Positions 1 to 13,999 of a DNA stretch of 64,000 nucleotides are shown here, one piece after another. The notes under the pieces were generated by a model. That model had not been told where the DNA came from. It ran no database searches and saw only the letters and a program-made list of their open reading frames with translations. A program made the translations under genes and the position numbers. Positions within the stretch are counted from its first letter, which is position 1. Every line of letters begins with the position of its first letter. Source of the DNA: Cylindrospermum sp. NIES-4074 (lineage in GTDB: Bacteria > Cyanobacteriota > Cyanobacteriia > Cyanobacteriales > Nostocaceae); contig AP018269.1 in NCBI GenBank assembly GCA_003994795.1, forward strand, positions 4,427,677-4,491,676, written 5' to 3'.

Positions 1-191
1 GCATAAGCTAGCTTATAGGAAGTAGGGATACCCTTTAAGATGGCTTCCAAGGCAGCAGAAGGAATAGGTTCTATGACTTCGATTTGATGAACTTCTCCAT
101 CGTCCTTGTAGAAGCAGGTCGCCAAGCCCAGCACAATGTAATCATCAGTTGCTAGGTCGGCAGCATTGGGATAGGAAATTGCTGTTGTCAT
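1..191 (-). CDS. Conserved hypothetical protein, N-terminal part (runs off window)
   Basis: Reading the minus strand from an ATG at 191 gives an open frame of 63 codons that reaches the window edge without a stop. It begins MTTAISYPNAADLATDDYIV and continues with a region rich in acidic residues (YKDDGEVHQIEVIEP). The reading is good coding sequence, but I do not recognise the family. No domain motif or signal peptide is visible in the part available. It is divergent from the TPR gene at 577. A 68-codon plus-strand frame over 149-355 overlaps its start and looks like noise. Confidence 0.7.
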   Translation of the reverse strand, partial: MTTAISYPNAADLATDDYIVLGLATCFYKDDGEVHQIEVIEPIPSAALEAILKGIPTSYKLAY

Positions 192-576
192 CGGAAAATC
201 TTCTCAAAACTTTAAAATCAAATCCAGGGAATGGAGGTTATGGAGATGCAGAGAGCTTGCTGTTGCATTTGGCTTCTGTGTCGTGTCTCAACTCTTGCCA
301 ATCTCTAATAAACGACTTACTGGCATTCTACCAAGTTGCTGCTCTCACTACCTGATTAGTCTTGTGGATTGATATTAATTCTTTCAGGAATTTAACTTGG
401 GGATGAAGTATACATTATAAAGTTTGAGGCTCAATGGTTTGAGTAGGCTGAATTCAGTCTTGATACTTGCGCTCAAGTAAACATTGACTCCTCAATAAAT
501 GGCACAGTGGCAACTCCACTAGCATGAAAAAAACTAAAATTTGATTTCACGGAGCCAGCAATTCAGGTAGGCAAAT
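192..576. other. Intergenic region between divergent genes; nothing recognised
   Basis: AT-rich sequence of about 385 bases between the start of the partial minus-strand gene and the TPR gene. It must contain both promoters, but I see no RNA gene, no clear operator palindrome and no repeat. A purine-rich stretch AGGTAGG just upstream of 577 is the probable ribosome binding site of the TPR gene. Confidence 0.5.
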
Positions 577-1299
577 ATGGACAGTCACTCATTTTTAGCT
601 TCTGGTAGTCAGCAAAACAAACGGTACAATTTAGTTAAAAATAATACTTTTATTCCAAAAAGTTACGGCGATAATGGTAGCACTGAATCTGTAATTGAGG
701 ACAAATACTTACGTAACTGTGCTTTAAAATCAGCGCAACAAGGAGATTACAAACAGGCGATCGCTCTTTTGAGCCAACTTATTTGCCGTCATCCCCAGAA
801 TGCTGTTGATTACAACAACCGAGGGCTGATTTATTTTCAAAGTGGTGAAACGCAAAAAGCGCTTTGTGACTATAACACAGCCCTAAAAATCAATCCAAAT
901 TTGGCTAGTGCTTATAATAATCGGGCAAATTACTATGCTGCTTGTGGAGAATTAGCAGCAGCACTCGCTGACTACGACCAAGCGCTAGATTTTAATCCTC
1001 GTCACGTTAGGGCTTGGATTAACCGGGGCATTACCTTGCGTGATTTGGGGCAATACGAGGAGGCAATTGAGAATTTTGAGATCGCCTTGCTTTTCAATCA
1101 ACTGGAAGGTCATATTTGGGCAGAACGGGGCAGGACTTACCATCTTTGGGGCGACTGGAATTGTGCGATCGCTGATTATCACCGCGCCCTCACACAATTA
1201 CCGACACTGCACAGTAGTCAAGATGTTTCCGGTTACCGCTTGCGTTTACAACTCGAAAATTGGTTAAACGAGCTGCTGTCTCCTCAAAATCCTGATTAG
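577..1299 (+). CDS. Tetratricopeptide repeat (TPR) protein
   Basis: This 240-residue protein has a polar, unstructured N-terminus (about residues 1-42) followed by five consecutive TPR units at roughly 43-75, 77-109, 111-143, 145-177 and 179-210. They show the usual W/Y-N-R-G pattern (YNNRGLIYF, YNNRANYY, WINRGITL, WAERGRTY) and the A-x-x-D-Y-x-x-A-L helix B signature. TPR domains bind partner proteins; no enzymatic domain is present. There is no signal peptide, so a cytoplasmic scaffold is most likely. The start ATG is preceded by AGGTAGG at a suitable distance. Partner and pathway cannot be told from the context. Confidence 0.9.
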   Translation: MDSHSFLASGSQQNKRYNLVKNNTFIPKSYGDNGSTESVIEDKYLRNCALKSAQQGDYKQAIALLSQLICRHPQNAVDYNNRGLIYFQSGETQKALCDYNTALKINPNLASAYNNRANYYAACGELAAALADYDQALDFNPRHVRAWINRGITLRDLGQYEEAIENFEIALLFNQLEGHIWAERGRTYHLWGDWNCAIADYHRALTQLPTLHSSQDVSGYRLRLQLENWLNELLSPQNPD

Positions 1300-1838
1300 T
1301 AAATTGTTAAATTCAAAATTCAAAACAAACCATTTTTAAACTTTGAATCAGAGCATAGCTACTCAAGATTACTCAGTAGCTGATAGATGATGACTACAGA
1401 GTAATTCAATAATTAGCTATTAACTCTTAGCAGATATAGTTACTAAAAATATAGTCGTAAGGATTCAGGTCTAGGACTGTGGAATTAAAGACAGCGGTCT
1501 TGGGCGCAAAGCCCAAGTGGAGGAGGCAGTGCTCGACTAGGGTTTCCCGGCTTGTACTCCTACGGAGAAGCAAGCTACGCGCAGCGTCTCCCCTTGGTAG
1601 AAGCAACTGCCGTCAACTGGTGAACCCGTAGGGCGGTCAACAAGAAAGTGGTGAGATTGAGCTTCCCACTAATTTTCTTTAATGCAAGAATTTTTAATTT
1701 TGCGGAAAGTCTGAGCGGAGGTTTCCTCCGATCATAACTTTCCAAGACGAATTTTTAATTGGAGCGAACGCGAGCAGCGTCTCGTAGAGAAGCGACTTGA
1801 CATACTCCTCACGCTGTTTCTACTGAGGGTGGGGAGTG
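1300..1838. repeat. Mosaic of dispersed repeats and an IS-like terminal hairpin
   Basis: No gene is visible here. The stretch 1480-1640 is built from short words typical of heterocystous genomes (agcggtcttggg, cccaagtgg, ctcctacggagaag, cgcagcgtctccc). A hairpin lies at 1704-1743, with ggaaagt pairing with actttcc and cggagg pairing with cctccg. The segment gcgtctcgtagagaagcgacttga at about 1779-1801 recurs in near-identical form at about 53684-53708. The final part, with complementary ctcctcac and gtggggagtgtc, resembles the end hairpin of IS200/IS605-type elements. I read the region as a landing pad of several small element remnants. Confidence 0.55.
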
Positions 1839-2744
1839 TCAACCTAACAAATCCTTCAGTGGATGGGTTTGGGACACTATTAGCTGGCGTAGCCATATAT
1901 TTAGTGGATCACAATCAAGACGCTTATGCCAAATCTGCATATAGTTATACTTACCAAGTTCAATTGGTGGCTCAAGAATAGTCAGATTTGTATATTGAGC
2001 AAAAAGCATTGCAATTCGACGAGGCAAAGTAAGAATGAGATCAGTCTGAGAGACAATCACAGGCGCTGAGAGAAAATACGGTAACTTCAACATTACTCGA
2101 CGCTTCACGCCTAAGCTGGATAAAACAGTATCCACATGGCTTACAGACGAGTTAGTGATTGTGATTAAGGCATGTGACCAAGCAATGTAAGATTCTATCG
2201 TAAAAGGCTTTTGAGTGATGGGATGGTCAGCCCTAACTATAGATACGAAATCTTCTACAAATAAGGTTTGGGACCTAAACTCCGAAGTATCTTGTAGATT
2301 TAGAAGTCCTAAAGCTAGATCAATCTTTCCCTTTTTCAATACATCTAATATATCAGAATGCCAATGATGACACTCCAGATTCAGATGGGGTGCATTGTCA
2401 GAAATTTGCTTAATAACCTTAGGAAGGATCACAACAGTTCCGTAATCTGATGCAGCTATTTGAATAGTGCCGAGCGCTGTTTTAGGTTCAAAACTAATTG
2501 GGTTAGTCAACTGCTCGATATATAACAGAATTTTCTGCAATGGTTCGACTAGCTCAAGAGCGCGTGGTGTGGGAACCATGCCTTTTGTAGTTCGCACAAG
2601 CAGTGGATCGTTAAACACTTCACGTAATCGTCCAAGCGCATGACTGGTTGCTGATTGACTCAAACCAATTTGTTCGCTAGCACGAGTAATACCAGTTGAG
2701 GAAATGCATGATTTTTGGCAAATCATTGGGTTGAGTAGGTTCAA
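1839..2744 (-). pseudogene. LysR-family regulator, 5'-truncated and fused to transposase sequence
   Basis: From about residue 17 the product is a good LysR-type regulator. It has the recognition part of the winged helix (ITRASEQIGLSQSATSHALG, then LREVFNDPLLVRT) and a C-terminal LysR substrate-binding domain to residue 301. What normally precedes it, the first helix around a D-L-N-L-L core, is missing. The preceding codons (MNLLNPMICQKSCISS) are the Y1 transposase fragment read in another frame. The junction lies close to 2693, in the shared bases ctcaactggtat. The gene therefore lacks its original start and roughly 20 residues. A product could still be made from ATG 2744 or an internal start, but DNA binding is doubtful. 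Confidence 0.75.
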
Positions 2745-2937
2745 TCAAGTAGTGGATGTGATTTGACATGATGCAGACTGCATACAGCTTAAAGTTATAT
2801 TTTTCAATAGCTTGTTTGATGGCATATAGAAACACCTCCCGGCATTCCCGTCGTTGGAGTTTAAATTCTCGATTATTACATCGAGTTGTGACGTGGTAAG
2901 TATACCCAGTCTGGAAATAACGACATTTTCTCGGCAT
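2693..2937 (-). pseudogene. REP-associated (Y1, IS200-like) transposase fragment
   Basis: Starting at MPRKCRYF (ATG at 2937) the frame reads as the N-terminal half of a RAYT/Y1 transposase. It has YHVTTRCNNREF, a YAIKQA helix and the HUH-type metal-binding motif in SNHIHYLIEP. The family normally continues for about 100 residues after LNWY, including the catalytic tyrosine region. Here it stops at LNWYYSC, where sequence identity switches to the LysR gene. It cannot be active. An upstream extension to 2976 in the same frame is open but does not resemble the family. Confidence 0.8.
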
Positions 2938-2995
2938 AGGATTAAAAATATTCACAGGACAATAACACCTCCCCATTCACTAAAAAATACCAACT

Positions 2996-3223
2996 ATGAA
3001 ACTTCCCAAACAATCTCCTCCCGTCAAACGTCCCGATTTAATTCAACCCCATGAAGCCGTCGATGTAGTTCACGGTAGCGTGGAAGATTTGGTTAACGTG
3101 CGGATGAAATTGCTGCATGGCGCGAACTACAACGACCCAGCAGGGTTTGAGTACCGTAGCTACAACCAACTTAAAACTTCTGGCTGTGGTTGCTTTCACT
3201 CTTCTACGGCGGCGTTTTTGTAA
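2996..3223 (+). CDS. Candidate RiPP (TOMM/cyanobactin-like) precursor peptide
   Basis: This small frame encodes 75 residues that I do not match to a named family. The first 55 or so are polar and leader-like (MKLPKQSPPVKRP, then VDVVHGSVEDLVNVRMKLL). The C-terminus, TSGCGCFHSSTAAFL, concentrates two Cys, three Ser and two Thr with glycine neighbours. That is the composition azole/azoline-installing enzymes act on. It sits upstream of the YcaO, SagB and PatA/PatG-type genes on the same strand, with only the LamG gene and one opposite-strand gene between. No strong Shine-Dalgarno is visible before the ATG. The precursor role is inference. Alternatively it is an unrelated hypothetical protein, or the head of a longer gene truncated by the adjacent repeat. 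Confidence 0.5.
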   Translation: MKLPKQSPPVKRPDLIQPHEAVDVVHGSVEDLVNVRMKLLHGANYNDPAGFEYRSYNQLKTSGCGCFHSSTAAFL

Positions 3224-3249
3224 CTGAATTACTCCAAATCCTTTTTCGT

Positions 3250-3282
3250 AGGGTGTGTTATGGACGTTAGTCCTAACGCACC
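3250..3282. repeat. Short palindromic repeat
   Basis: The words gggtgtgtta and taacgcacc form imperfect arms around a short centre (tggacgttagtcc). This is a type of small palindrome widely dispersed in cyanobacterial genomes. It lies between the candidate precursor gene and the LamG region. Confidence 0.45.
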
Positions 3283-3306
3283 GAGAATATAGGATGGTAA
3301 CGGGTG

Positions 3307-3385
3307 CGATCGCTCACGATAAAACCAGCAATGCCAATCATGGCATCTTGCAAGGCGGCTCCAGTTGGGAGCTATCGAGCTTTGT
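3307..3385 (+). pseudogene. Remnant tail of a second LamG-type gene
   Basis: In the frame that runs into the LamG gene, the sequence AIAHDKTSNANHGILQGG followed by SSWELSS parallels the C-terminal part of the intact LamG protein (GDRTTSRATGTVVGEATWEES) in spacing and conserved residues. It looks like the last strands of a lost or recombined duplicate. No start or upstream coding sequence remains. Proposed by eye from the alignment of these two short stretches. Confidence 0.4.
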
Positions 3386-3428
3386 TTTAGCAGTTCTAAA
3401 GAATGTTCAAGGTAAGGAGTTTAAAACT

Positions 3429-4241
3429 ATGGCAGCACCAAAAACCAAATCCACATCGGTTGTTCCCGTTGCCCCGGCATCGCCAGCTTCAACTCAGTTA
3501 GTGCTAAGTTTGGCAGAAGTCATTGCGGCTGGCAGTGGTGCCTTAAAACCTGGGGATGCTTCGTTCACAATCGAAGCTTGGGTATATCCTACGACCAAGG
3601 CGGGCAAGCAAGTAATTTACAGTGAAGGCGAAAGCTTGCTTTATCTCGAAGGCGGCGAACTCAAGTTTCAGACTGCTCCTGCTCCTGCGATTGCGTCGGT
3701 CGGGGCTAAGATTGCGGCTAGCAATTGGTATCATGTTGCCGTGTCACGAGCCGGAAATCGTCCTGGCAATACAAAGCTCTACATCAACGGTATCCAAAAC
3801 GACAATCAAGCTGCCATTGGGTCAGTTCTGTCCGTTGGTAATTCTTATTTAGGTGGGCAGCCTGATGTGCCAGATTCCCGTTTTCAAGGCAAGTTGCTAG
3901 AGGTGCGGGTATGGCGGTATGGGCGATCGCCAGCGGAAATCCAGGCAAATATGTGCTACTACTTGACCGGGCGGGAATTGGGTTTGATTCGCTGCTGGAC
4001 AATGAATGAAGGATTTGGCAACACAATTGGCGATCGCACGACCTCCCGAGCAACGGGAACTGTCGTGGGTGAAGCTACTTGGGAAGAGTCAGAGATTCCC
4101 ATCAAAATTAATCTCAATGCTCAGGAGCGGTTAACGCGATCGACTGGATTGGAAGATTACGGCTACTGGTTTAGAGAAATGGCGAAACAGCAGAAAACTC
4201 AAACAGAGCCTCACTTCCGGCGCGGTCGAATTTGGGCATAA
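3429..4241 (+). CDS. LamG (concanavalin A-like lectin/glucanase fold) domain protein
   Basis: From the ATG at 3429, preceded by AAGGAG nine bases upstream, this encodes 270 residues starting MAAPKTKSTSVVPVAP. A Pro/Ala/Ser-rich N-terminal linker (to about residue 22) is followed by one LamG domain with the typical FTIEAWVYP, WYHVAVSR, LYINGI and EVRVWRYGRSPAEI strands, and a C-terminal tail ending RRGRIWA. LamG domains bind glycans or proteins. There is no Sec signal peptide and no membrane segment. The frame is open back to 3255, but that part reads as a remnant of another LamG tail. It is co-directional with the RiPP genes, so a role in that cluster is possible but unproven. Confidence 0.8.
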   Translation: MAAPKTKSTSVVPVAPASPASTQLVLSLAEVIAAGSGALKPGDASFTIEAWVYPTTKAGKQVIYSEGESLLYLEGGELKFQTAPAPAIASVGAKIAASNWYHVAVSRAGNRPGNTKLYINGIQNDNQAAIGSVLSVGNSYLGGQPDVPDSRFQGKLLEVRVWRYGRSPAEIQANMCYYLTGRELGLIRCWTMNEGFGNTIGDRTTSRATGTVVGEATWEESEIPIKINLNAQERLTRSTGLEDYGYWFREMAKQQKTQTEPHFRRGRIWA

Positions 4242-4381
4242 AGTTAGGTGCGATCGCTCTTCTCGATACACCAAGCACGATGCCACATACAGACTTCTTT
4301 CACACAGAAGCGGTCAGACCCACCGACTAATGTATCAACCTTAAACTTAAGTCGAGCGATCGCCTTTACACACAATTTCCC

Positions 4382-5020
4382 TCAATCCCTATCCGCCAAT
4401 AGCTGTTTAAGTTCTCGAATCGCCGCACTGGTATTTCGCTCATAAGCAACTTGAAAACAATGGGAAACCACATCTTGGAGATCGATGTTTGGAAAATATT
4501 GGCTCTGCGTCTGACTCAGATACTCTGTCCCCTGCAACTGGTAAACAAACAACTGGTTTTTCCGGAACAGCCAAACTTCTGGGACTCGATAGGGCAGGTA
4601 ATCATTGACATCCGAATAACTGGTTACATCAATTTCCAGCACTAGATCAGGCGGTGGATTAGTCTTCCAGTCAATGCGATCCTTGCCAGAAACCACTTGC
4701 CAATGGTCAATGTAAAAGCAATAATCCGGTTCAATGCCGCTCTCATCTGGCAGTTCCATCGTTACTGGCGTAAAGGAATCGTATTCGCGTCCTGTGTAAT
4801 CCAAGAGAACTTTAATGATATCGGCGATCAAACTTGCATCACGCCCATGTTTAGGAAGAGGAGACATTAACAGAACTTCTCCACAATGATACTTAATTCG
4901 AGGAATCGAGCGATCGCCCCGTTGTTGACACAACTTCTGGTAATTTTGCCAGGTAGCAGGCAACCGCACAACAGCTCCTACAGGTAACTGAATTTTCTCA
5001 GGTGATACCAGAGCAAACAT
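4382..5020 (-). CDS. Uma2 family (DUF820) putative endonuclease
   Basis: This 212-residue protein has the features of the large cyanobacterial Uma2/DUF820 family: an N-terminal helix (TWQNYQKLCQQ), YHCGEVLLMSPLPKHG, and the PD-(D/E)XK-like core with GIEPDYCFYI and LVLEIDVTSYSD. Members are frequent, often multicopy and of unknown substrate; nuclease activity is predicted from the fold. It is transcribed divergently from the cyclodehydratase, with 43 bases between the starts, and convergently with the LamG gene. This suggests a later insertion into the RiPP locus rather than a functional part of it. Confidence 0.85.
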   Translation of the reverse strand: MFALVSPEKIQLPVGAVVRLPATWQNYQKLCQQRGDRSIPRIKYHCGEVLLMSPLPKHGRDASLIADIIKVLLDYTGREYDSFTPVTMELPDESGIEPDYCFYIDHWQVVSGKDRIDWKTNPPPDLVLEIDVTSYSDVNDYLPYRVPEVWLFRKNQLFVYQLQGTEYLSQTQSQYFPNIDLQDVVSHCFQVAYERNTSAAIRELKQLLADRD

Positions 5021-5063
5021 GACTCAATCTCCTATAACCGCCTAAGCTTATCCTAAACTAAGT

Positions 5064-7394
5064 ATGAAAATTCCTCAGATTAAACCTCATTTTCGCGTGG
5101 AGATCGTTGAACCCAAAAATGTCTATCTACTGGGTGAATATGCGACCTACGCACTAACAGGCGGTCTCTATTGCCAAATTATTCCTCTGCTCAATGGTCA
5201 ACACACTAGAGAAGAAATTATTCAAAAACTCGATGGGCAAGTTCCCCCTGAACACTTTGATTATGTAATTGATCGCCTGTTGGAAAAAGGCTACCTCACC
5301 GATGCGGCTCACAGCCTCACCCGCGAAGCTGCTGCATTTTGGAGTCTATTAGGTGTAGATCCGCAAGTGGTGAGCGAACAATTACTGCATACCCAAGTAT
5401 TAATTACCACCGTGGGAGCCGTTGACGCGCAACCTTTGATTGAGTCATTACAAGCGCTGCAAATTCCGGTGCATGAGTGGCAAGAAGACACCCCCCTTGC
5501 CAAGGGGGTTCCCCCCGTTGAAGCAAGTGGCGTGGGACTACAGGGGGGTAAGATCAATCATTCCCTACTGCTCGTACTGACAGATGACTATCTCCAGCCA
5601 GAACTAAGGCGTATCAACGAGATGGCACTGCAAAACAAGCAACCTTGGCTACTCGTCAAACCAATTGGCGGGATGCTCTGGTTTGGGTCTATTTTTCATC
5701 CAGGGGAAACAGGATGTTGGGAATGTCTCGCCCATCGTCTCAAAGGTAATCGGGAAGTTGAAGCATCAGTTTTAAAGCAGAAGAAAGAGGAAAAAGGGTG
5801 TTTACCAACTGCTGTGGCTGGCTTGTCTTCGACGGTGCAAACTGCAATTAGTTTAACCACCACTGAAATTGCCAAATGGCTGGTTAACCATTGCATCAGT
5901 GAAGCAAAAATTCAGACATTAGCCGGGAAAATCATCACCCTCGATCAGAGAAACTTCACTCTAAAAACTCACTCACTCACCCAGCGTCCTCAATGTCCTG
6001 CTTGTGGGAATCCCGATTTAGTTAGTCAACAGGTCAAAAGTGCGATCGCTCTCACCAGTCGCAAAAAGCTATTTACTCAAGATGGCGGACATCGCGCCTT
6101 TACACCAGAGCAAATTCTGCAACGCTACGAGCATTTAATTAGCCCGATTACCGGAGTCGTTAGCGACCTAGTGCGGGTTTCTGACCCCAACAATCCCTTT
6201 GTACATACCTACAGCGCCACCCATGCTTTCGGTACTTCTTCCAGTTTAAATAAGCTGCGAAAATCCTTAGGACACAAAAGCGGCGGTAAGGGGAAAAGCG
6301 ATCGCCAATCCCAAGCTAGTGGATTTTGTGAAGCGATCGAACGCTATTCTGGCATTTATCAAGGCGACGAACCCAAAATTCGCGCCACATTAGCTGAATT
6401 AGGCGAACTCGCTATTCATCCAGCCCGATGCTTGCTGTTCAGCGACACCCAGTATCAAAACCGGGAGGAGTTGAATCAAAAGGCCATAGTAGACCACGAT
6501 TGGATTCCAAAACCCTTTGACGAAACCCAGGCGATCGATTGGACTCCCGTATGGTCATTAACCGAGCAACGGCACAAATACCTCCCCACCGCCTTTTGTT
6601 ACTACGATTACAAACTTCCCAAAGAGCATCGCTTCTGTTCTGCTGACTCCAACGGCAATGCTGCCGGAGGAACCCTAGAAGATGCCATTTTACAGGGCTT
6701 TTTAGAACTGGTAGAGCGAGATAGCGTCGCTATCTGGTGGTATAGTCGCCTTTCTCGTCCCAGTGTAGACTTGGCCAGTTTCAACGAACCTTACTTATTA
6801 GATTTGCAGAATTGGTATCGTAGTCAACACCGGGAACTGTGGGTACTCGATTTAACCACAGACTTGAAGATTCCCGCCTTTGCTGCTGTATCTCGCTATA
6901 TTGGTGGCGGTGACGAACGCATCATCGCTGGATACGGAGCGCATTTCGACCCCAAAATTGCGATTTTACGAGCTGTCACTGAAGTCAATCAAATTGGGAC
7001 TGGTGTAGACCAACAGGATTATTCAACTGCTCCAGACTCCGCCTTATATCATTGGTTTACCCAAGCAACCTTAGCCAATCAGCCCTATCTTGCACCTAGC
7101 ACTGAGCAAAGGGCGAAACTATACACAGATTACCCGCAGCAATGGAGTGATGATATCGAGCAAGATGTCTTAAAGAGCGTGGAAGTCGCTAGAGATGCGG
7201 GGCTAGAAATGCTGGTACTCAACCAAACCCGCCCTGATATTGGCTTACCTGTAGTCAAAGCGATCGTACCCGGTTTACGCCACTTCTGGTCAAGATTTGG
7301 GGCTGGACGGTTGTATGATGTCCCCGTAAAACTCGGATGGCTTTCTACCCCTTTGACCGAAGACCAAATGAACCCGATGCCAATGGTATTTTAA
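5064..7394 (+). CDS. TOMM azoline cyclodehydratase (ThiF-like/YcaO fusion)
   Basis: This 776-residue fused cyclodehydratase is of the kind that converts Cys/Ser/Thr in a precursor peptide to azolines. Residues 1-85 look like a winged-helix peptide-recognition element. About 105-330 form a ThiF/E1-like domain with a zinc site from two CxxC pairs (C218, C221, C311, C314). About 360-776 form the ATP-dependent YcaO domain (EAIERYSG at 423, ELVERDS at 549, ILRAVTEVNQ later). The C-terminus, NPMPMVF, is a variant of the proline-rich tail that YcaO cyclodehydratases use in catalysis. Residues about 142-162 look like an in-frame repeat insertion. The stop lies four bases before the dehydrogenase gene, so the two are probably translationally coupled. 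Confidence 0.93.
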   Translation: MKIPQIKPHFRVEIVEPKNVYLLGEYATYALTGGLYCQIIPLLNGQHTREEIIQKLDGQVPPEHFDYVIDRLLEKGYLTDAAHSLTREAAAFWSLLGVDPQVVSEQLLHTQVLITTVGAVDAQPLIESLQALQIPVHEWQEDTPLAKGVPPVEASGVGLQGGKINHSLLLVLTDDYLQPELRRINEMALQNKQPWLLVKPIGGMLWFGSIFHPGETGCWECLAHRLKGNREVEASVLKQKKEEKGCLPTAVAGLSSTVQTAISLTTTEIAKWLVNHCISEAKIQTLAGKIITLDQRNFTLKTHSLTQRPQCPACGNPDLVSQQVKSAIALTSRKKLFTQDGGHRAFTPEQILQRYEHLISPITGVVSDLVRVSDPNNPFVHTYSATHAFGTSSSLNKLRKSLGHKSGGKGKSDRQSQASGFCEAIERYSGIYQGDEPKIRATLAELGELAIHPARCLLFSDTQYQNREELNQKAIVDHDWIPKPFDETQAIDWTPVWSLTEQRHKYLPTAFCYYDYKLPKEHRFCSADSNGNAAGGTLEDAILQGFLELVERDSVAIWWYSRLSRPSVDLASFNEPYLLDLQNWYRSQHRELWVLDLTTDLKIPAFAAVSRYIGGGDERIIAGYGAHFDPKIAILRAVTEVNQIGTGVDQQDYSTAPDSALYHWFTQATLANQPYLAPSTEQRAKLYTDYPQQWSDDIEQDVLKSVEVARDAGLEMLVLNQTRPDIGLPVVKAIVPGLRHFWSRFGAGRLYDVPVKLGWLSTPLTEDQMNPMPMVF
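5489..5550. repeat. Palindromic repeat inserted in frame in the cyclodehydratase gene
   Basis: The bases accccccttgccaagggggt form a near-perfect palindrome, followed by ccccccgttg and closed by caggggggt. The words closely resemble those of the intergenic island at 39.6-39.9 kb (cccccttaaaaagggggt, ttccccccgttg). The segment encodes TPLAKGVPPVEASGVGLQGG, a Gly/Pro-rich stretch unlike its surroundings. It keeps the reading frame open. Confidence 0.6.
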
Positions 7395-7398
7395 TAAG

Positions 7399-8790
7399 AT
7401 GTCTGATTTCTTCACTCTTTCTTTCTGTCCTGATATTGCCCTCATTGCTGAAGGTGATCAACTAACTCTGCGATCGCCTCAAAACAGTCTGACGTTGGAA
7501 AACCCTCAGCCAGGATTGAGAACCGCCTTAGAACACCTCAAACATCCCACTCTCACTCTTTCACAACTCCAAGCTGTTGTTGCCCAATTGGATGGAGTCG
7601 AAGCCAGTTTCAATTTTGAGTCGGAGTTGCAAAAGCTCATTAGCCTGGGTTGGATTTGTCATTCCGTTTTACCATTGGCAACTGCCATTGCGATCGCCGA
7701 AAATTATCAATTAATTGTTCCTGATTTTGATGAGGAACAGCCTTTAATACTGTCTCGGTTTGCCTTTCTGCGGCAGGAAAAACAACAGTTTGTTTTAGAA
7801 TCTCCCCTTTCCAAAGCCAAAATTATTTTGCTAGATTGGCGGGCGACAGCCTTAATTGGGAAACTAGCTGAGGTTGATTCGTCATTCACACTTTTAACTT
7901 TAGCAGATGGGCTAATTGATGCAGAGATAGTGCGATCGTTTATGCAATTGCTCATGGCAACTGGGATGATCTCATTAGAACCCGAAAGTGATGCCTTATC
8001 CGAATGGCAATTTCATAACCTGCTGTTTCATCGCCAAACCCGTTTACAGCGATTAGACGAGCCGCCTAAAACGGAACTTCCTCAATTCAAGGATGATGTG
8101 CGATCGCACATGGTGAAACCACCCATGAGCAACCAAGTCATTTCCTTAGAGAAACCTAACCTAGAAGCCTTAGCCAAAACAGATATTTCCCTCACCCAGG
8201 CGATCGAAGAAAGACAATCGATTCGGGAATATGACGACCAGCCTATTACCTTACACCAGTTAGGAGAGTTCCTATATCGCTGTGCCAGAGTCAAAGAGGT
8301 TTACACCCCTGAAGAAGATGCTATGAACGTTGGAGAATGTACAAAACGTCCATATCCCTCCGGTGGTGCGTTATACGAACTAGAGATTTATCCAGTCATT
8401 AATCGGTGTCAGGGATTGAATTCGGGACTATACCACTATCAACCTTTGTCTCACACTCTGCACCAGATTAGCGATTGGCATCCAGAAGTTGAAGCTTTAA
8501 TTTTCGATGCCTGGAAATCAACTGGACAACAAGATATTCCGCAAGTTCTTTTAATTGTTACTGCCAGATTTGGGCGGCTATTTTGGAAATATCATGGCAT
8601 CGGTTACGGTTTAATTTTGAAACATATTGGGGTGCTGTATCAAACATTTTATCTCGTTGCCACTGCCATGAAATTAGCACCAACTGCGATCGGCGGCGGT
8701 AGCTCTGAACAGTTCGGCAAAATTGCCAACCTTAACGAACATGAAGAGTCGTCAGTCGGCGAATTTATGCTGGGTTCGTTGAAACAATAA
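7399..8790 (+). CDS. SagB-type azoline dehydrogenase (FMN nitroreductase family)
   Basis: The 463-residue product ends in a nitroreductase-fold domain (from about residue 262) with RQSIREYDDQPIT near 271, YPSGGALYELEIYPV, GLYHYQPLSH and GGGSSEQF near 433. These are the signatures of SagB/ThcOx oxidoreductases, which use FMN to oxidise thiazolines and oxazolines to azoles. The first 200 residues form an extra N-terminal region that probably binds peptide or mediates contact with the cyclodehydratase, as in larger cyanobacterial members. The gene starts four bases after the cyclodehydratase stop and is followed 52 bases later by the protease. The cluster therefore carries the three standard activities: cyclise, oxidise, cleave. 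Confidence 0.93.
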   Translation: MSDFFTLSFCPDIALIAEGDQLTLRSPQNSLTLENPQPGLRTALEHLKHPTLTLSQLQAVVAQLDGVEASFNFESELQKLISLGWICHSVLPLATAIAIAENYQLIVPDFDEEQPLILSRFAFLRQEKQQFVLESPLSKAKIILLDWRATALIGKLAEVDSSFTLLTLADGLIDAEIVRSFMQLLMATGMISLEPESDALSEWQFHNLLFHRQTRLQRLDEPPKTELPQFKDDVRSHMVKPPMSNQVISLEKPNLEALAKTDISLTQAIEERQSIREYDDQPITLHQLGEFLYRCARVKEVYTPEEDAMNVGECTKRPYPSGGALYELEIYPVINRCQGLNSGLYHYQPLSHTLHQISDWHPEVEALIFDAWKSTGQQDIPQVLLIVTARFGRLFWKYHGIGYGLILKHIGVLYQTFYLVATAMKLAPTAIGGGSSEQFGKIANLNEHEESSVGEFMLGSLKQ

Positions 8791-8842
8791 AAAGCCTTGC
8801 TCAAAATATTTCCTCAATAAATTATTAAACCTCTAAATTCCT

Positions 8843-11194
8843 ATGCCTGACTTAATTACGATTCCTGGTTTTCCTGAACTCCAAGCCATCACACGCGGCG
8901 ATTCCCGCATCAAAATTGCTGTCCTTGATGGCCCTGCCGACCTCGATCGCGCTTGCTTTCGTGGTGCAAACTTGAGTAGAGTCAATCCCTTTTGGCAACA
9001 AAAACTAGAGCCAATTGACCCGATTTACATTACTCAACAACGTCAAATTAATGCCCTTAAGGACAAAAAAAAGGCTTTAAAAAAAGCATTAAAGCAGAGC
9101 GAAAAGGAGAATGCACAGGATAGAAATGAGAATCAAATTTCGCCAGCGATCGCTCAAGTTACACCATCGAATATAGTGCGATCTTATGGCGATTTGATCG
9201 CCGTCTTCAATGCTGTGCTAGAAAACACAGATGCACCACTAATTGAGCAATATCGCCAGTTAAGTGGGTCTAAACAGCAGAAATCACGGTTCGGCTCCGC
9301 TCACCGACCACCCAAACCAGAAATATCTTCAAATATCAACTATGCCGCCGAAATCGCAGCTATAGAGGCAGAAATCGAAGCCTTAGAAGAGGCAATTCCC
9401 AAACCAGTGAAAGAACGTCTAGGAGGTATCTTCCACGCAACTGGCATTCTTTCCATGATGTTTGGACAACCTGGTTCCCCCGTTGAGGGAGTAGCTCCCT
9501 ACTGCACCGCCATTAATATTCCCCTGTTTGAAACCGCAACTAGCGGTGAATCAATATCTCCCCTGAACATAGCTCATGCCTTTAACTTGGCATTGGAACT
9601 GGGTGTAAACATCATTCACTGCGCCGCCTGCCACCCCACCCAAACCGGGTTCGCCCACGAAATGATTCAAAAAGCAGTAAAACAATGTCAGGACAATGGG
9701 ATTCTGATTGTGGCTCCTAGTGGTAATAACAAGGGTGAATGGTTTTGCGCTCCAGCGATTTTGCCGAATGTGCTAGCAGTAGGCATGATGAAAGACAATG
9801 GACAACCCGCAAACTATAGTAATTGGGGCGGACAGTATCAGGAACAGGGCATTCTGGCACCGGGCGAAAACATCCTAGCGGCAGAACCAGGCAGCGATGA
9901 ACCTGTGCGCCAAGAAGGAACCAGTTTGTCGGCTCCCCTCATGACTGGTCTCTCTGCCTTGATGATGAGTGTGCAATTGCAACGCGGTGAACAACCCAAC
10001 GCCGAAGCAGTACGGATGGCTTTTCTCAACAGTGCCATTCCCTGTGATCCCCAAGAAGTTGCCGAACCCGAACGCTGTTTAGTGGGTAAATTAAATATTT
10101 CCGGTGCTTATCAATTACTAACTGGAAAGTCTTTACTCAGCATTCAACCAACCCATACTGTTCGTCCACAAATTACTCTGCCGACTAACACCAATTCTGT
10201 AAATATATCCGAATCTGCGGTAATAAGCTCCTCTGTTCCTCCCAATGAGGTTCAGGGTTCTACTGCTACTCAACTCGTCACAGCCTCAGCCACCCTTGCA
10301 GACATATCCTCCCCTGCCGCCCTAACTTCTTCCACCATCACCCCCAGCGCCGTCTCCAACAAAGTCTACGCCCTCGGCACTATTGGCTACGATTTCGGCT
10401 CCGAAGCCCGCCGCGACACCTTCAAGCAACTGATGCCTACAGTCAGCATAGATGGGGTATTAGTTCCCCCTAATCCCTATGATGCCAGTCAGATGGTTAA
10501 TCACCTGGAGTTAAACCCTGCTGAAGGTAAATCTCTGATCTGGACTTTAAATCAGGAACTCACTCCCATCTACGCCCTAGAACCCCAAAAGGCATTTGCT
10601 AACGAAATCTATGCTGTCTTGCAAATGCTGCTGGCTGGACAAATTCAGCCTGAATCTAGCGATGCTCACATTGAGCGAGTCAGTATTCCCGGTACTCTGA
10701 CCGATCGCACAGTCGAACTTTTCTCTGGTCAAGTTGTTCCTGTCCTGGCTTTACCGAACATCCGAGGAATGTATGGCTGGCAAGTTAACTCCCTTGTAGA
10801 AGCAGCAGTTAACACTGTCAGTCCTGAAGCAAGCGTTCCTGATAGTGTGGCAATGCGGCGTTCCCTCAAGAGTTTTCTGCATCGCATTTACTTCGACTTG
10901 CGAAACTTGGGACAACTTGATCGCGATCGCGCCCTCAATTTTGCTGCGACTAACGCATTTCAGGCTGCTTCTACCTTTGAGTTAGCGATCGCTAGTGGCA
11001 TGGAACTTGATAGTATCGAAGTTGAAAAAAGTCCTTTCTGCCGCCTCAATAGTAATTGCTGGGATGTCAAGCTGAAGTTTTTTGACCCAGAAAACAGCCG
11101 TCGGGCTAAGAAAGTCTATCGATTCACAATCGATGTTGCCAATATCATGCCAGTCACATTAGGCCAAGTGCGATCGTGGTCAGTGCCACGTTAG
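8843..11194 (+). CDS. PatA/PatG-type subtilisin maturation protease
   Basis: The 783-residue protein has a subtilase domain with catalytic Asp29 (IAVLDGPAD), His198 (FHATGI), Asn295 in SGNN for the oxyanion hole, and Ser361 (GTSLSAP). A charged coiled insertion of about 120 residues (65-190) lies between Asp and His, and a Ser/Thr/Pro linker (430-500) follows. The last 270 residues, beginning VYALGTIGYDFGSEARRD, match the C-terminal domain of PatA/PatG-family cyanobactin proteases. Those enzymes remove the leader (PatA) or cyclise the core (PatG). Only one such gene is present, so whether it cleaves or macrocyclises cannot be decided. There is no signal peptide, which fits cytoplasmic processing. 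Confidence 0.92.
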   Translation: MPDLITIPGFPELQAITRGDSRIKIAVLDGPADLDRACFRGANLSRVNPFWQQKLEPIDPIYITQQRQINALKDKKKALKKALKQSEKENAQDRNENQISPAIAQVTPSNIVRSYGDLIAVFNAVLENTDAPLIEQYRQLSGSKQQKSRFGSAHRPPKPEISSNINYAAEIAAIEAEIEALEEAIPKPVKERLGGIFHATGILSMMFGQPGSPVEGVAPYCTAINIPLFETATSGESISPLNIAHAFNLALELGVNIIHCAACHPTQTGFAHEMIQKAVKQCQDNGILIVAPSGNNKGEWFCAPAILPNVLAVGMMKDNGQPANYSNWGGQYQEQGILAPGENILAAEPGSDEPVRQEGTSLSAPLMTGLSALMMSVQLQRGEQPNAEAVRMAFLNSAIPCDPQEVAEPERCLVGKLNISGAYQLLTGKSLLSIQPTHTVRPQITLPTNTNSVNISESAVISSSVPPNEVQGSTATQLVTASATLADISSPAALTSSTITPSAVSNKVYALGTIGYDFGSEARRDTFKQLMPTVSIDGVLVPPNPYDASQMVNHLELNPAEGKSLIWTLNQELTPIYALEPQKAFANEIYAVLQMLLAGQIQPESSDAHIERVSIPGTLTDRTVELFSGQVVPVLALPNIRGMYGWQVNSLVEAAVNTVSPEASVPDSVAMRRSLKSFLHRIYFDLRNLGQLDRDRALNFAATNAFQAASTFELAIASGMELDSIEVEKSPFCRLNSNCWDVKLKFFDPENSRRAKKVYRFTIDVANIMPVTLGQVRSWSVPR

Positions 11195-11198
11195 TAGA

Positions 11199-11449
11199 AC
11201 TTACGCATTGACAAAAAACGCAAGAAGTGAGTAAACAGAATGAAGAAAAATGTGTCTCCAACTCTCAAGGTAATGCATGAACTAAAAGAGGAATTTCGCC
11301 AGCTTTTTGAAAAAACTGATAGTTGGTTAACCGCATTGTTTAAACTTGGTATGTGGTTATCAAAAGCTAAAAAATATTTCCCAGATAGCTAGAATACTAT
11401 TTTTCGTTGGCTTGACGAGATTAGAGCTTACTTTGATAACAGGGCTTGA
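11199..11449 (+). pseudogene. ISL3-family transposase remnant with terminal-repeat-like end
   Basis: From ATG 11240 the frame reads HELKEEFRQLFEKTDSWLTA, then ALFKLGMWLSKAKKYFPDS. A TAG codon follows at 11390. In the same frame it resumes NTIFRWLDEIRAYFDNR and stops at 11447. This is the C-terminal region of an ISL3-type transposase (R-W-F/L-D-E-I-x-x-Y-F) with a nonsense codon and most of the gene missing. The words acttacgcattgaca at 11199-11213, five bases after the protease stop, recur at 34946-34960. They look like an IS end. Confidence 0.65.
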
Positions 11450-11512
11450 AAATCAATACAAATTAATTCCCTATTTAGACGCAACTGGGAGCACAAATCA
11501 CATTAACAGCCC

Positions 11513-11923
11513 TTAGGGCAACGAATCTGATTGTTCAGCTTCTTTGCGATCCTGATTCATCAGCACAATCTGACGTTGGCTAGGGTCAAATCTATATGCG
11601 TTTTTTTGCATAATACTTTTAGCTTGGCGGGGATCAAAATTCTGGCTAAATTCCGCTTGCAATTTATTGACGCGTCCTTCCATCAGCTTAACTTCTGTAT
11701 GGATTTCGCGCAACTTTTCTTGTTGTAACCAATGATAAGGCAAAAGTTGCGTTAGGGCTGATACGGCTGCTGCGGAAATAGCCAAGTTAACTACTATCTT
11801 GGCTGTAGTTTCTAGTCCCATTACTTGGTAAGAACGTTGGCGAAGATGACGTTTTGTCCGAGGCACAACTCGACGTTTTTCTACAGGTTGTAGCGGGGGT
11901 CTGGATGATTGAAACGCGTTCAT
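11513..11923 (-). CDS. Small membrane protein with coiled coil (FtsB/FtsL-like topology)
   Basis: This 136-residue protein has a basic cytoplasmic head (EKRRVVPRTKRHLRQRS), one membrane segment at about 40-62 (KIVVNLAISAAAVSALTQLL) and a helical, coiled-coil-like stretch (LREIHTEVKLMEGRVNKLQAEF) outside. It is a conserved cyanobacterial hypothetical. The topology matches division proteins of the FtsB/FtsL type, but I see no diagnostic motif, so that is only a suggestion. The ATG at 11923 is the natural start. It faces the ISL3 remnant and may be convergent with the end of the RiPP cluster. Confidence 0.75.
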   Translation of the reverse strand: MNAFQSSRPPLQPVEKRRVVPRTKRHLRQRSYQVMGLETTAKIVVNLAISAAAVSALTQLLPYHWLQQEKLREIHTEVKLMEGRVNKLQAEFSQNFDPRQAKSIMQKNAYRFDPSQRQIVLMNQDRKEAEQSDSLP

Positions 11924-12069
11924 GATGCTAAAAAGAGCCTCGCTGATTGAAGGGAAGCACCGTCAAAAGCACACTGGCACTAATTGCGGCTGATTTAGCT
12001 GCCATATTACTTCATTTTTAGGAAATTGCTACACGTGTGGCATGAATTAATAAATAACCTGGCATACGT

Positions 12070-12262
12070 AAGTTTGGTTTAGAAGAGGGGTGTAGGGGGG
12101 GAAGAAGAGGAGAGGGGGGGGAGGGGGAAGGGGGGGAAGAGGGGGGAGATGGGGAAGCAGAGGAGTAATATTTAATATTTCTCACTCCCCACACTCCCCA
12201 CACTCCCCACACTCCCCACACTCCCCACACTCCCCACACTCCCCACACTCCCCACACCCTTA
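12070..12262. repeat. Purine-rich tract plus ACTCCCCAC nonamer array (STRR)
   Basis: A G/A-only tract (12081-12165) is joined by ttaatatttctc to about eight tandem copies of the 9-base unit actccccac (12181-12262). The whole block reappears in reverse complement at 13806-13995. A long minus-strand frame over it (12018-12305) translates the array as VWG repeats and is not a gene. Confidence 0.85.
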
Positions 12263-12274
12263 CTTCTCTTGGCG

Positions 12275-12406
12275 TTATTTGTAAAGTTCTGTGGCTAACC
12301 GCCAAGCCAGAATTCCGGGAATTAGCGCCACAGCCAGAGCGATGTACACTTGAGTATCAGAAATAGAAGACACCTGAGCGATGTAGAGAGTATTTAGTAT
12401 GGACAT
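12275..12406 (-). CDS. psaM: Photosystem I reaction centre subunit XII (PsaM)
   Basis: The minus strand encodes 43 residues whose last 30 (SDTQVYIALAVALIPGILAW, then RLATELYK) are unmistakably PsaM, the single-helix subunit of photosystem I that helps trimer contacts in the thylakoid membrane. PsaM is usually about 30 residues. Here the only in-frame ATG gives a 12-residue N-terminal extension (MSILNTLYIAQV). The upstream sequence on the minus strand contains aggagg about eight bases before this ATG, which supports the long start. It is divergent from the FGGY kinase gene. Confidence 0.92.
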   Translation of the reverse strand: MSILNTLYIAQVSSISDTQVYIALAVALIPGILAWRLATELYK

Positions 12407-12542
12407 GGTTTGAAACCTCCTAAGCTCAATAGATTTACAACACTTCGTTTACTACTTTTCACTGTTTTGCCAAGATTGGGGAATATCTTGTTACAAGATG
12501 CAACAAAAACAGTGATTTTCCCTGAGGAAATTTGGTCAAATT

Positions 12543-13802
12543 ATGGATTTGTATCTGGGAATCGACTTCGGCACCTCTGGCGCACGGGGTGTGGTGATTG
12601 ACAAAGGAGCCACTATCCTGGCTGAAGTGCGTTATCCTTGGGAAATTCCGGCTGCTTCTGACTGGGTAACTTGCTGGCAGAGAGCTTTGTTTACCCTGCT
12701 AGAACTAATACCTAGAGAATTGCGGCGAGAAATCGAGGCGATCACTATTAATGGGACATCTTCCACGATTTTGCTAGGCGATGCCGCAGGTCAGCCTGTA
12801 GATGCACCGTTATTGTACAACGATGCACGGGGATCAGGAATGTTAGCGCAGTTGCAAAGCGTCGCCCCAGCCAACCATACCGTATTGAGTTCTACCTCCA
12901 GCCTAGCGAAACTGCTGTGGATGAGGCAATTACCATCTTTTAAGGAAGCTAGATATTTAATGCACCAAGCCGATTGGCTAGGCTTTCTCCTGCATGGACA
13001 TTTAGGTATTAGCGACTACCATAACGCCTTAAAGCTAGGTTATGACGTTGAAGAGTTAAAATACCCAGAATGGCTAGAAAATCTGCAAATCCCCATTCAA
13101 CTACCGCAAGTTTTACCACCTGGTACTCCAATTGCAGAATTGCGCCCAGAGATTGCAGCTAATTTGGGTTTCCGGCGTGATTGTGTAGTGTGCGCGGGGA
13201 CAACTGATAGTATTGCTGCTTTTCTCGCTAGTGGGGCAAAATTTCCTGGGGAAGCGGTGACTTCTCTTGGTTCGACCCTGGTACTCAAACTTTTGAGTCG
13301 TACCCGCGTTGAGGATGCAAGGTATGGGATTTATAGCCATCGCTTAGGGGATTTGTGGCTCACTGGGGGGGCTTCTAACACTGGGGGTGCGGTGTTAAGG
13401 CATTTTTTCACTGATGAGGAGTTGGAAAGCCTTAGCCGCGAGATTGATGCAGCTAAAGTTAGTGAGTTAGATTATTATCCATTGTTGAAGGCAGGCGATC
13501 GCTTTCCGATTAATGATCCCCAGTTACCCCCAAGATTAGAACCGCGCCCAGAAAATCCTAGTAAATTTCTGCATGGTTTATTAGAAAGTATCGCCCGCAT
13601 AGAAGCACGGGGATATGAATTATTACAACAGCTAGGAGCGGATAACTTAAGCCGTGTTTATACGGCGGGTGGTGGTGCAGCGAATCCCACTTGGACTAAT
13701 ATTCGTAGACGGTATTTAAAAGTGCCTGTATTTGCATCAAAGCATACAGAAGCTGCTTATGGAACAGCGCTTTTGGCAATGCAGGGAGTTAGAAATGATT
13801 GA
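12543..13802 (+). CDS. FGGY-family pentulose kinase (D-ribulose kinase-like)
   Basis: The 419-residue protein has both actin-like ATPase halves of the FGGY family: GIDFGTSGARGVVID at the N-terminus (phosphate 1 loop), INGTSST near 75, the second-domain GTTDSIAAFLASGA and SLGSTLVLK, and the adenosine loop TAGGGAANPTW near 380. It is shorter than classical xylulokinases (about 480-500) and the same size as the cyanobacterial and plant xylulose-kinase-like proteins. Those were assigned as D-ribulose kinases, so ribulose is the best substrate guess. It lies between two inverted copies of a G/C-rich repeat block and is divergent from psaM. Confidence 0.88.
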   Translation: MDLYLGIDFGTSGARGVVIDKGATILAEVRYPWEIPAASDWVTCWQRALFTLLELIPRELRREIEAITINGTSSTILLGDAAGQPVDAPLLYNDARGSGMLAQLQSVAPANHTVLSSTSSLAKLLWMRQLPSFKEARYLMHQADWLGFLLHGHLGISDYHNALKLGYDVEELKYPEWLENLQIPIQLPQVLPPGTPIAELRPEIAANLGFRRDCVVCAGTTDSIAAFLASGAKFPGEAVTSLGSTLVLKLLSRTRVEDARYGIYSHRLGDLWLTGGASNTGGAVLRHFFTDEELESLSREIDAAKVSELDYYPLLKAGDRFPINDPQLPPRLEPRPENPSKFLHGLLESIARIEARGYELLQQLGADNLSRVYTAGGGAANPTWTNIRRRYLKVPVFASKHTEAAYGTALLAMQGVRND

Positions 13803-13805
13803 AGA

Positions 13806-13995
13806 GCGGTGTGGGGAGTGTGGGGAGTGTGGGGGGTGTGGGGAGTGTGGGGAGTGTGGGGAGTGTGGGGAGTGTGGGGAGTGAGAGATATTAAATATTA
13901 TTCCTCTGCTTCCCCATTTCCCCCATCTTCCCCCTCTTCCCCCTCTCCCCCCTCTTCTCTTCTTCCCCTACACCCCACACCCCACCCCCTACACC
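13806..13995. repeat. GTGGGGAGT nonamer array plus pyrimidine tract (inverted copy)
   Basis: About eight tandem gtggggagt units (13808-13880) are followed by gagatattaaatattattcctctgcttcccc and a C/T tract. The sequence is the reverse complement of 12070-12262, so the kinase gene and psaM are bracketed by inverted repeats. A third, direct copy of the pyrimidine tract occurs at about 15285-15335. The frame at 13809-14018 is an artefact of the array. Confidence 0.85.
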
Positions 13996-13999
13996 CTTC

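What the first reader, a model, noticed from the sequence alone, without database searches (positions are those of the whole stretch)
2996..11194. Compact RiPP (azole-containing, cyanobactin-like) gene cluster with a single PatA/PatG-type protease
Seen: a fused ThiF-like/YcaO cyclodehydratase, a SagB-type dehydrogenase four bases downstream and a PatA/PatG-type subtilisin 52 bases further on. These are preceded by a small Cys/Ser/Thr-tailed frame and a LamG protein. Known: PatA/PatG proteases and PatD cyclodehydratases define cyanobactins, while SagB dehydrogenases define linear azole TOMMs. The cluster mixes both logics, has one protease instead of two, has no adjacent transporter, and carries a LamG gene with no standard RiPP role. 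Inference: it makes an azole-bearing, protease-processed peptide of a not yet described type.
Basis: partly seen in the sequence, partly recalled or inferred. Interest (0 to 1): 0.85.

Follow-up and report, generated by a model that had tools for sequence, protein, structure and literature searches.

The report
Cyanobactin cluster that lost its precursors
This is part of a known kind of cyanobacterial gene cluster that makes small ring-shaped peptides; in this genome the genes for the peptide itself and for one of the two cutting enzymes appear to have been deleted, so the remaining enzymes look like a relic rather than a new kind of pathway.

Summary
The five genes are real and correctly placed but mostly misnamed: the 75-aa "Cys-tailed precursor" is PatB, the LamG protein PatC, the fused enzyme a PatD/LynD cyclodehydratase, the "SagB" the standalone cyanobactin oxidase ThcOx/CyaGox, the single protease PatG. 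Relatives have the same genes in the same order plus, mostly, PatA, and 1-5 PatE precursor copies (13 of 13 scan loci with PatD and ThcOx). In this genome PatA, PatE and PatF were not found. Two scars mark the losses: a half transposase abutting a decapitated LysR gene beside PatB, and, between PatC and PatD, a 21-bp box that in relatives precedes PatE (29 of 31 boxes; one more precedes a PatE cut after about 10 codons; the last is the window's). It is the genome's only box. The enzymes show no relaxed selection, so the loss is recent or a substrate was missed. Reading: a decayed azole cyanobactin cluster, not a new RiPP type. A by-product is more novel: lone PatA proteases followed by small peptides that share a leader motif with PatE and PatB.

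The parts
2677..2976 (-). 5' part of a Y1/IS200-like (REP-associated type) transposase gene; residues 1-83 homologous at 2937-2689, rest missing; marks the left breakpoint
   Evidence: Y1_Tnp 51.5 bits, cut-off 23; NF047646 REP_Tyr_transpos 48.8 bits, below its cut-off of 80; the full L044 copy also stays below it, 67.6; 79.5% to the L044 transposase; blastn 83% to L073 and L061 copies, and 2811-2955 matches the copy just before PatB in L073
1839..2744 (-). LysR-type regulator whose first about 24 residues are missing or replaced; other side of the left breakpoint (about 2690)
   Evidence: relatives in G342 and G393 start with about 24 further residues
2996..3223 (+). PatB (75 aa), not a precursor of the PatE kind; carries LPKQSPPVKR near its start and a Cys tail
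   Evidence: TIGR04220 123.4 bits, cut-off 55; alignment of 21 PatB
3255..4241 (+). PatC: one LamG domain plus C-terminal PatC/TenC/TruC domain; L040 and L041 PatC show up to 4 matches to the LamG part, L044 two
   Evidence: PF13385 76.3 bits; TIGR04447 52.2 bits; 57% to L044 PatC; repeats judged from tblastn pieces
4308..4328 (+). orphan box AAGCGGTCAGACCCACCGACT, in relatives upstream of PatE; fossil of a deleted PatE; wider homology 4250-4328
   Evidence: only copy in the genome with up to 3 mismatches
4382..5020 (-). Uma2-type gene; a homologous stretch lies upstream of PatD also in L067 and L076
   Evidence: PF05685 87.9 bits; blastn 82% and 79%
5064..7394 (+). PatD/LynD-type leader-binding + YcaO cyclodehydratase, intact frame
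   Evidence: TIGR03882, TIGR03604, PF02624; 1035.6 bits to LynD 4v1t
7399..8790 (+). ThcOx/CyaGox azoline oxidase, intact frame
   Evidence: PF18679, PF22767, TIGR03605; 636 bits to 5lq4
8843..11194 (+). PatG-type macrocyclase (S8 + PatG_D + PatG_C), putative triad D29, H198, S361 kept, no oxidase domain
   Evidence: TIGR03895 829 bits; PatG_D, PatG_C; PatG clade in tree; 4uvq, 4h6x; Asp-His spacing about 170 against 36 in PatA; invariant columns

Best explanation
A truncated, probably silent, azole cyanobactin cluster. The ancestral pathway, still whole in relatives, should work as in patellamide/microcyclamide biosynthesis: PatD turns Cys (Ser/Thr) of the PatE core into azolines, ThcOx oxidises them, PatA cuts after the leader, PatG cuts before the SYDGDDAE-like tail and closes the ring; PatB and PatC are conserved accessory proteins of unknown role. 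In this genome one rearrangement removed PatA, the left PatE copies and half of a transposase, and another removed a PatE (in L067 a PatE-plus-transposase unit) between PatC and PatD, leaving its upstream box. Shown: gene identities, synteny, no detectable PatE/PatA/PatF, both scars. Inferred: the pathway steps (from the families), the number and order of events, and that no product is made.
For: Identities. Synteny: 12 of 17 loci from the named-genome scan hold PatD-ThcOx-PatG in this order, and a 13th (L061) ends with its contig after ThcOx; PatA is seen in 10 of the 12 (in L073 cut by the end of the stretch). PatE leader matches in 13 of these 13. Own genome: one TIGR03895 match over cut-off, the window's own; PatE models find none at E<=1 or E<=10, while 4 of 6 other PatB-bearing genomes ring at E<=5.1e-24 (their own PatE are in the model); PatF none (where no control rang; the model scores 379 and 403 bits on two relatives). 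Scars: transposase/LysR junction; box. In L067 the stretch between box and Uma2 homology (8723-9324) holds a PatE and a transposase remnant; in the window 57 bp remain.
Against: The frames are intact and pairwise omega values (0.09-0.21 for window pairs) overlap those between relatives (0.09-0.20), and the PatD branch (0.10) is no longer than its sisters': no sign of decay, so the loss is recent or the enzymes are still used. The A3 PatE model gave nothing convincing in 2 of 6 other PatB-bearing genomes (G036, G283), so a divergent precursor could escape. PatE counts in relatives rest on leader matches; some copies lack the SYDGDDAE-like tail, e.g. the only one on the L061 contig. The assembly has 5 contigs, not one.
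Confidence: 0.8

Rival explanations
1. The cluster is functional and acts on a precursor encoded elsewhere in the genome that the PatE models do not recognise; another protease replaces PatA.
For: Intact enzymes under normal constraint; the PatE model finds nothing convincing in 2 of 6 other PatB-bearing genomes.
Against: The genome's only copy of the PatE-upstream box (up to 3 mismatches) is the orphan one; no PatE at E<=10; 13 of 13 scan loci with PatD and ThcOx have PatE matches in the cluster.
Confidence: 0.13
2. PatB (the 75-aa frame) is itself the substrate, as the reader proposed in other words: a motif-bearing leader followed by a Cys-rich tail.
For: PatB starts with LPxQxxPVxR, shared with PatE and with small peptides downstream of lone PatA proteases; short Cys-bearing tail beyond the conserved part.
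Against: PatB lacks the LAELSEEAL-like segment of PatE and a G(L/V)E(A/P)S site; hhalign PatB vs PatE gives 1.3% probability; PatB is reported non-essential (PMC4663559 and PMC4259220 passages).
Confidence: 0.05
3. Assembly artefact: PatE repeats and PatA were lost in assembly of a repetitive locus.
For: PatE units are repeated in relatives.
Against: Repeat collapse should leave a copy; PatA is gone too; the left junction joins a decapitated gene to a half gene; the second junction lies at an independent place.
Confidence: 0.04

Closest known systems
Azole cyanobactin clusters with a separate oxidase (ThcOx/CyaGox, trichamide type) and microcyclamide/patellamide-type PatE, as in Argonema antarcticum A004/B2 (L073) and Nostoc sp. 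CHAB 5836 (L067)
   Same: PatB, PatC, PatD, ThcOx, PatG in the same order and strand; PatD 85% (L073) and 77% (L067) identical
   Different: Window lacks PatA and all PatE; only the upstream box and a transposase stub remain
Inactive piricyclamide cluster of Microcystis aeruginosa NIES-843 (PMC3428304, passages read)
   Same: A cyanobactin cluster put out of action by rearrangement around mobile elements
   Different: There two IS insertions interrupt the cluster and three precursor genes remain; here precursors and PatA are missing
Linear azole TOMMs of the SagBCD type (layout recalled)
   Same: Nitroreductase-like dehydrogenase and YcaO enzyme
   Different: Here the dehydrogenase belongs to the ThcOx family, the YcaO is fused with its leader-binding part as in PatD, and the protease is a PatG

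Membership tests
Azole cyanobactin cluster | PatG-type macrocyclase (S8 with DUF) | tested here: met
Azole cyanobactin cluster | PatD-type cyclodehydratase | tested here: met
Azole cyanobactin cluster | ThcOx-type oxidase, fused or separate | tested here: met
Azole cyanobactin cluster | PatB and PatC | tested here: met
Azole cyanobactin cluster | PatA N-terminal protease | tested here: not met
   the only over-cut-off match in the genome is the window's PatG; so it is filed as a remnant of such a cluster, not as a working one
Azole cyanobactin cluster | PatE precursor | tested here: not met
   (in one search, 4 of 6 other PatB-bearing genomes rang, 2 did not)
Azole cyanobactin cluster | azole macrocyclic product | not testable with these tools
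   needs mass spectrometry
SagB-type linear TOMM | separate SagC and SagD beside SagB (layout recalled) | tested here: not met
   fused PatD architecture and ThcOx domains

The most novel reading that the evidence does not exclude
The motif LPxQxxPVxR at the start of PatB is a general address read by PatA/PatG-type proteases: it is shared by PatE, by PatB and by a family of small Cys-rich or hydrophobic peptides encoded right behind lone PatA proteases. PatB would then descend from a precursor, and the window's reduced cluster would be a working system whose PatG, and perhaps PatD/ThcOx, act on PatB without any PatE.
Probability: 0.05. Interest if true: 0.75.

Novelty: new member of a known kind. 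Interest (0 to 1): 0.3.

Why it matters
For this locus: it corrects a tempting reading (new RiPP class) and shows how a precursor-less cyanobactin relic can be recognised by an orphan PatE-upstream box and a transposase stub. The comparison also gives testable leads: an element that precedes many PatE genes of this clade, a transposase that rides behind PatE copies, and PatA-only loci whose small peptides share a leader motif with PatE and PatB, which may give a handle on two open questions, the roles of PatB and of the conserved domain of PatA/PatG.

Tried and rejected
Second YcaO in the genome (C1:6402932, L001): another fused cyclodehydratase; no over-cut-off PatA/PatG match there; not connected.

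PatE remnants in the window by tblastn and by a leader pattern: only chance-level matches. Rfam on 1-14000: 37 matches at E<=1, all below their gathering scores and all in two simple-repeat stretches (12.1-12.3 and 13.8-14.0 kb); none at the box. Promoter scan of 2400-11600: 13 found against 13.0 expected by shuffling, no use.

PatB vs PatE profile comparison: the motif columns align but the probability is 1.3%, so common descent is not shown. Binding of the motif by the PatG DUF: PMC4259220 (passages) reports no binding of PatE' or heterocyclised PatE' by the PatG DUF; this speaks against the simplest form of my motif idea.

Branch-wise dN/dS on reconstructed ancestors was planned and dropped (see below); pairwise Nei-Gojobori was used, which cannot date the loss.

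Structure prediction of the PatG catalytic part had not finished at the last collection and is not used.

Full report
WHAT IS THERE. NCBIfam and Pfam name them: 2996-3223 is PatB (TIGR04220, 123.4 bits, cut-off 55); 3255-4241 is a LamG protein whose last 32 residues are the PatC/TenC/TruC domain (TIGR04447, 52.2 bits, cut-off 30); 5064-7394 is a PatD (TIGR03882 141 bits; TIGR03604 272 bits; YcaO 338 bits); 7399-8790 carries the HTH_57, ThcOx and nitroreductase domains of the cyanobactin oxidase; 8843-11194 matches the PatA/PatG protease model over its full length (829 bits, cut-off 421). Against solved structures the closest are PatG DUF 4uvq and PatG protease 4h6x, LynD 4v1t (1035.6 bits) and CyaGox 5lq4 (636 bits). 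The genome is 7.7 Mb in 5 contigs, the window at C1:4427677-4491676.

THE SINGLE PROTEASE IS PATG. In a tree of 27 proteases from relatives and the window, the window's lies in the clade of the downstream proteases (15 rows, 100/100), apart from the 12 upstream PatA (100/100); one PatG row, L043, has a long branch that the program flags. The Asp-His spacing of the putative catalytic triad is about 170 in the window, 153-179 in the 13 other PatG of this clade, 73 in the longer PatG frame of L043, and 36 in the 11 PatA where it could be measured. D29, H198 and S361 are invariant in 14 aligned PatG.

RELATIVES. TIGR04220 (PatB) was found in 19 of 388 genomes of the class, the window's included (18 over the cut-off). 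A scan of named genomes with a PatD alignment gave 17 loci. 12 hold PatD-ThcOx-PatG in the window's order; L061 ends with its contig after ThcOx; three Okeania loci (L071, L075, L077) show only PatD and weak PatE matches; L076 shows only the first 95 residues of PatD. PatA is seen in 10 of the 12 (in L073 cut by the end of the stretch); L068 has only its last 57 residues and L070 starts at a contig end. PatE leader matches are present in 13 of 13 (the 12 and L061), 1 to 5 each; some of these copies lack the usual SYDGDDAE-like tail. Eight PatE from L040, L041 and L044 all match TIGR03678, the microcyclamide/patellamide family, at E<=1 (best 2e-17). PatC of L040, L041 and L044 gives several matches to the window's LamG part. 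A PatF prenyltransferase lies just before PatD in L061 and between two PatE in L044 (TIGR04445 403 and 379 bits).

WHAT IS MISSING. In the window's own genome TIGR03895 has four matches, one over its cut-off, the window's PatG. TIGR03678 reaches at best 12.4 bits (cut-off 39.6). A PatE model from 8 rows finds nothing at E<=1 and one from 21 rows nothing at E<=10. In one search, of six other genomes that hold PatB, four gave PatE at E<=5.1e-24 (G177, G189, G350, G365; their own PatE are in the model), but G036 gave none and G283 only E 1.24; so a divergent precursor could be missed. PatF was not found (no control rang in that call).

SCAR ONE. Left of PatB is the N-terminal part (residues 1-83) of a Y1-type transposase, antisense. 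In 9 of the 13 loci (L061, L063-L067, L070, L073, L074) the same transposase or a remnant lies antisense just left of PatB; window 2811-2955 matches the L073 copy that ends 60 bp before PatB. In the window the transposase stops at about 2689 and runs into a LysR gene that lacks about 24 N-terminal residues present in two relatives. Two genes of this transposase family were found in the genome at E<=1e-5; the other has no cyanobactin gene in the 3.6 kb around it.

SCAR TWO. Between PatC and PatD, window 4250-4328 matches the DNA upstream of PatE in L061, and 4289-4328 matches the DNA upstream of PatE in many relatives. I counted a 21-bp core (up to 5 mismatches) in 16 relative loci and the window: 31 boxes; 29 lie within 160 bp upstream of a PatE match (39-114 bp from the start codon where I compared coordinates, mostly 50-58); one (L061 2933) precedes a PatE cut after about 10 codons; one is the window's, after which homology stops at once. 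By my own arithmetic, not a call, about one match would be expected by chance at this tolerance. Conversely 29 of 43 PatE have the box, 14 do not. L064 and L074 are near copies, so the rows are not independent. In L067 the 602 bp between box and Uma2 homology hold PatE and a transposase remnant; in the window 57 bp remain. The genome holds one box with up to 3 mismatches, the orphan.

STATE OF THE ENZYMES. Pairwise omega (Nei-Gojobori): PatD window-L061 0.117, window-L073 0.133, L061-L073 0.106; ThcOx 0.156, 0.207, 0.195; PatG window-L073 0.152, window-L062 0.141, L062-L064 0.139. A codon model on 13 PatD gave omega 0.132. The PatD branch of the window is 0.10, its sisters' 0.095 and 0.099 from the shared node. 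So there is no decay yet. This fits a recent loss best, but also a cluster still in use on an unrecognised substrate.

VERDICT ON THE READING. A separate oxidase is known (trichamide, passage of PMC4663559); PatB and PatC are conserved and reported non-essential (same passages, and PMC4259220). Inactive cyanobactin clusters are known, e.g. NIES-843 (PMC3428304 passages), and transposase genes near cyanobactin clusters too (PMC4603692 passages; PMC4663559). The cluster is a new, precursor-less member of a known kind. My paper searches (open-licence PMC only; listings, partly capped, and the named passages) showed no account of this locus, of the box, or of the PatA-only loci below; that is not proof that none exists.

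SIDE RESULT. In the two congeners the best match to the window's PatG is a protease of 42-43% identity that is closer to PatA (48-50%). One search (148 genomes of the order) showed 16 genomes with a single strong TIGR03895 match, the window's own among them. I fetched G116 (and G388) and nine of the single-match genomes, with three multi-match genomes; G457, G511 and G520 (partial matches) were not looked at, and G097 and G136 were held as PatB-bearing L030 and L034. Of the nine, L154 (G129) turned out to be a lone PatG-type protease without motif peptides; the other eight, with G116 and G388, are the 10 lone-PatA loci; L155-L157 hold both proteases. All 10 carry small frames with the motif LPx(Q/L/K)xxP(V/I/L)xR: 22 hits, all on the PatA strand and 50-3,374 bp downstream; 13 of 22 show a loosely G(V/I)xxS-like site (pattern widened by eye), compare G(L/V)E(A/P)S reported for PatA (PMC10885120 passages), before a Cys-rich or hydrophobic tail; reversed DNA of the same 176,312 bp gave 1 hit. 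L151 and L152 share near-identical peptides. Two hits look like PatB (L149 33%, L153 35%), and two (L151 3502, L152 11012) run into a PatA-like stretch. The pattern was fitted on some of these loci, so it is a lead. PatB and PatE share the motif, but profile comparison does not prove kinship.

Noticed in passing
L115 11407-14887, L116 9409-9654, L146-L153: Lone PatA-type proteases without PatG (PatD only a weak 29% match in L147) are followed on the same strand by small peptides with an LPxQxxPVxR leader motif, in 13 of 22 a G(V/I)xxS-like site, then a Cys-rich or hydrophobic tail: 22 hits in 10 of 10 loci, 1 in reversed DNA. Possibly a PatA-only peptide family.
   Followed up: partly
window 4308-4328 and upstream of PatE in L040, L043, L061-L067, L069, L070, L072-L074: Conserved box AAGCGGTCAGACCCACCGACT, with further conserved flanks in most loci (ACAGTCTTCTTT before, GAGCAACGGCTCGACAACGGGACA after), upstream of 29 of 43 PatE genes; promoter or 5' leader element of unknown function, no Rfam match in the window.
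   Followed up: partly
L061, L063-L070, L073, L074, L043: 23 of 43 PatE copies have an antisense Y1-type transposase or its remnant within 450 bp downstream (two PatE of L069 share one), as if PatE and transposase were duplicated as a unit; the window's genome holds only two such transposase genes.
   Followed up: partly
window 8843-11194 and its PatG relatives: The Asp-His segment of PatG is 153-179 residues long in this clade against 73 in the PatG frame of L043 and 36 in PatA; it contains a charged, Lys-rich stretch.
   Followed up: partly
L061 2933-3080, L068 503-673, L076 6874-7155, L154: Other signs of erosion in this cluster family: PatE cut after about 10 codons, PatA reduced to its last 57 residues, PatD match ending at residue 95, a lone PatG-type protease without PatB, PatD or PatE matches in its 19 kb.
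   Followed up: no
L001 325-2625 (genome C1:6402932): Second fused TOMM cyclodehydratase in the genome; the frames beside it look like a hexapeptide-repeat and an amidohydrolase-like protein (by eye); no PatA/PatG protease match there.
   Followed up: no
window 12079-12268 and 13772-14000: Two copies of a short simple-repeat stretch (frames read VWGVWGVWG...), which attract all 37 sub-threshold Rfam matches.
   Followed up: no
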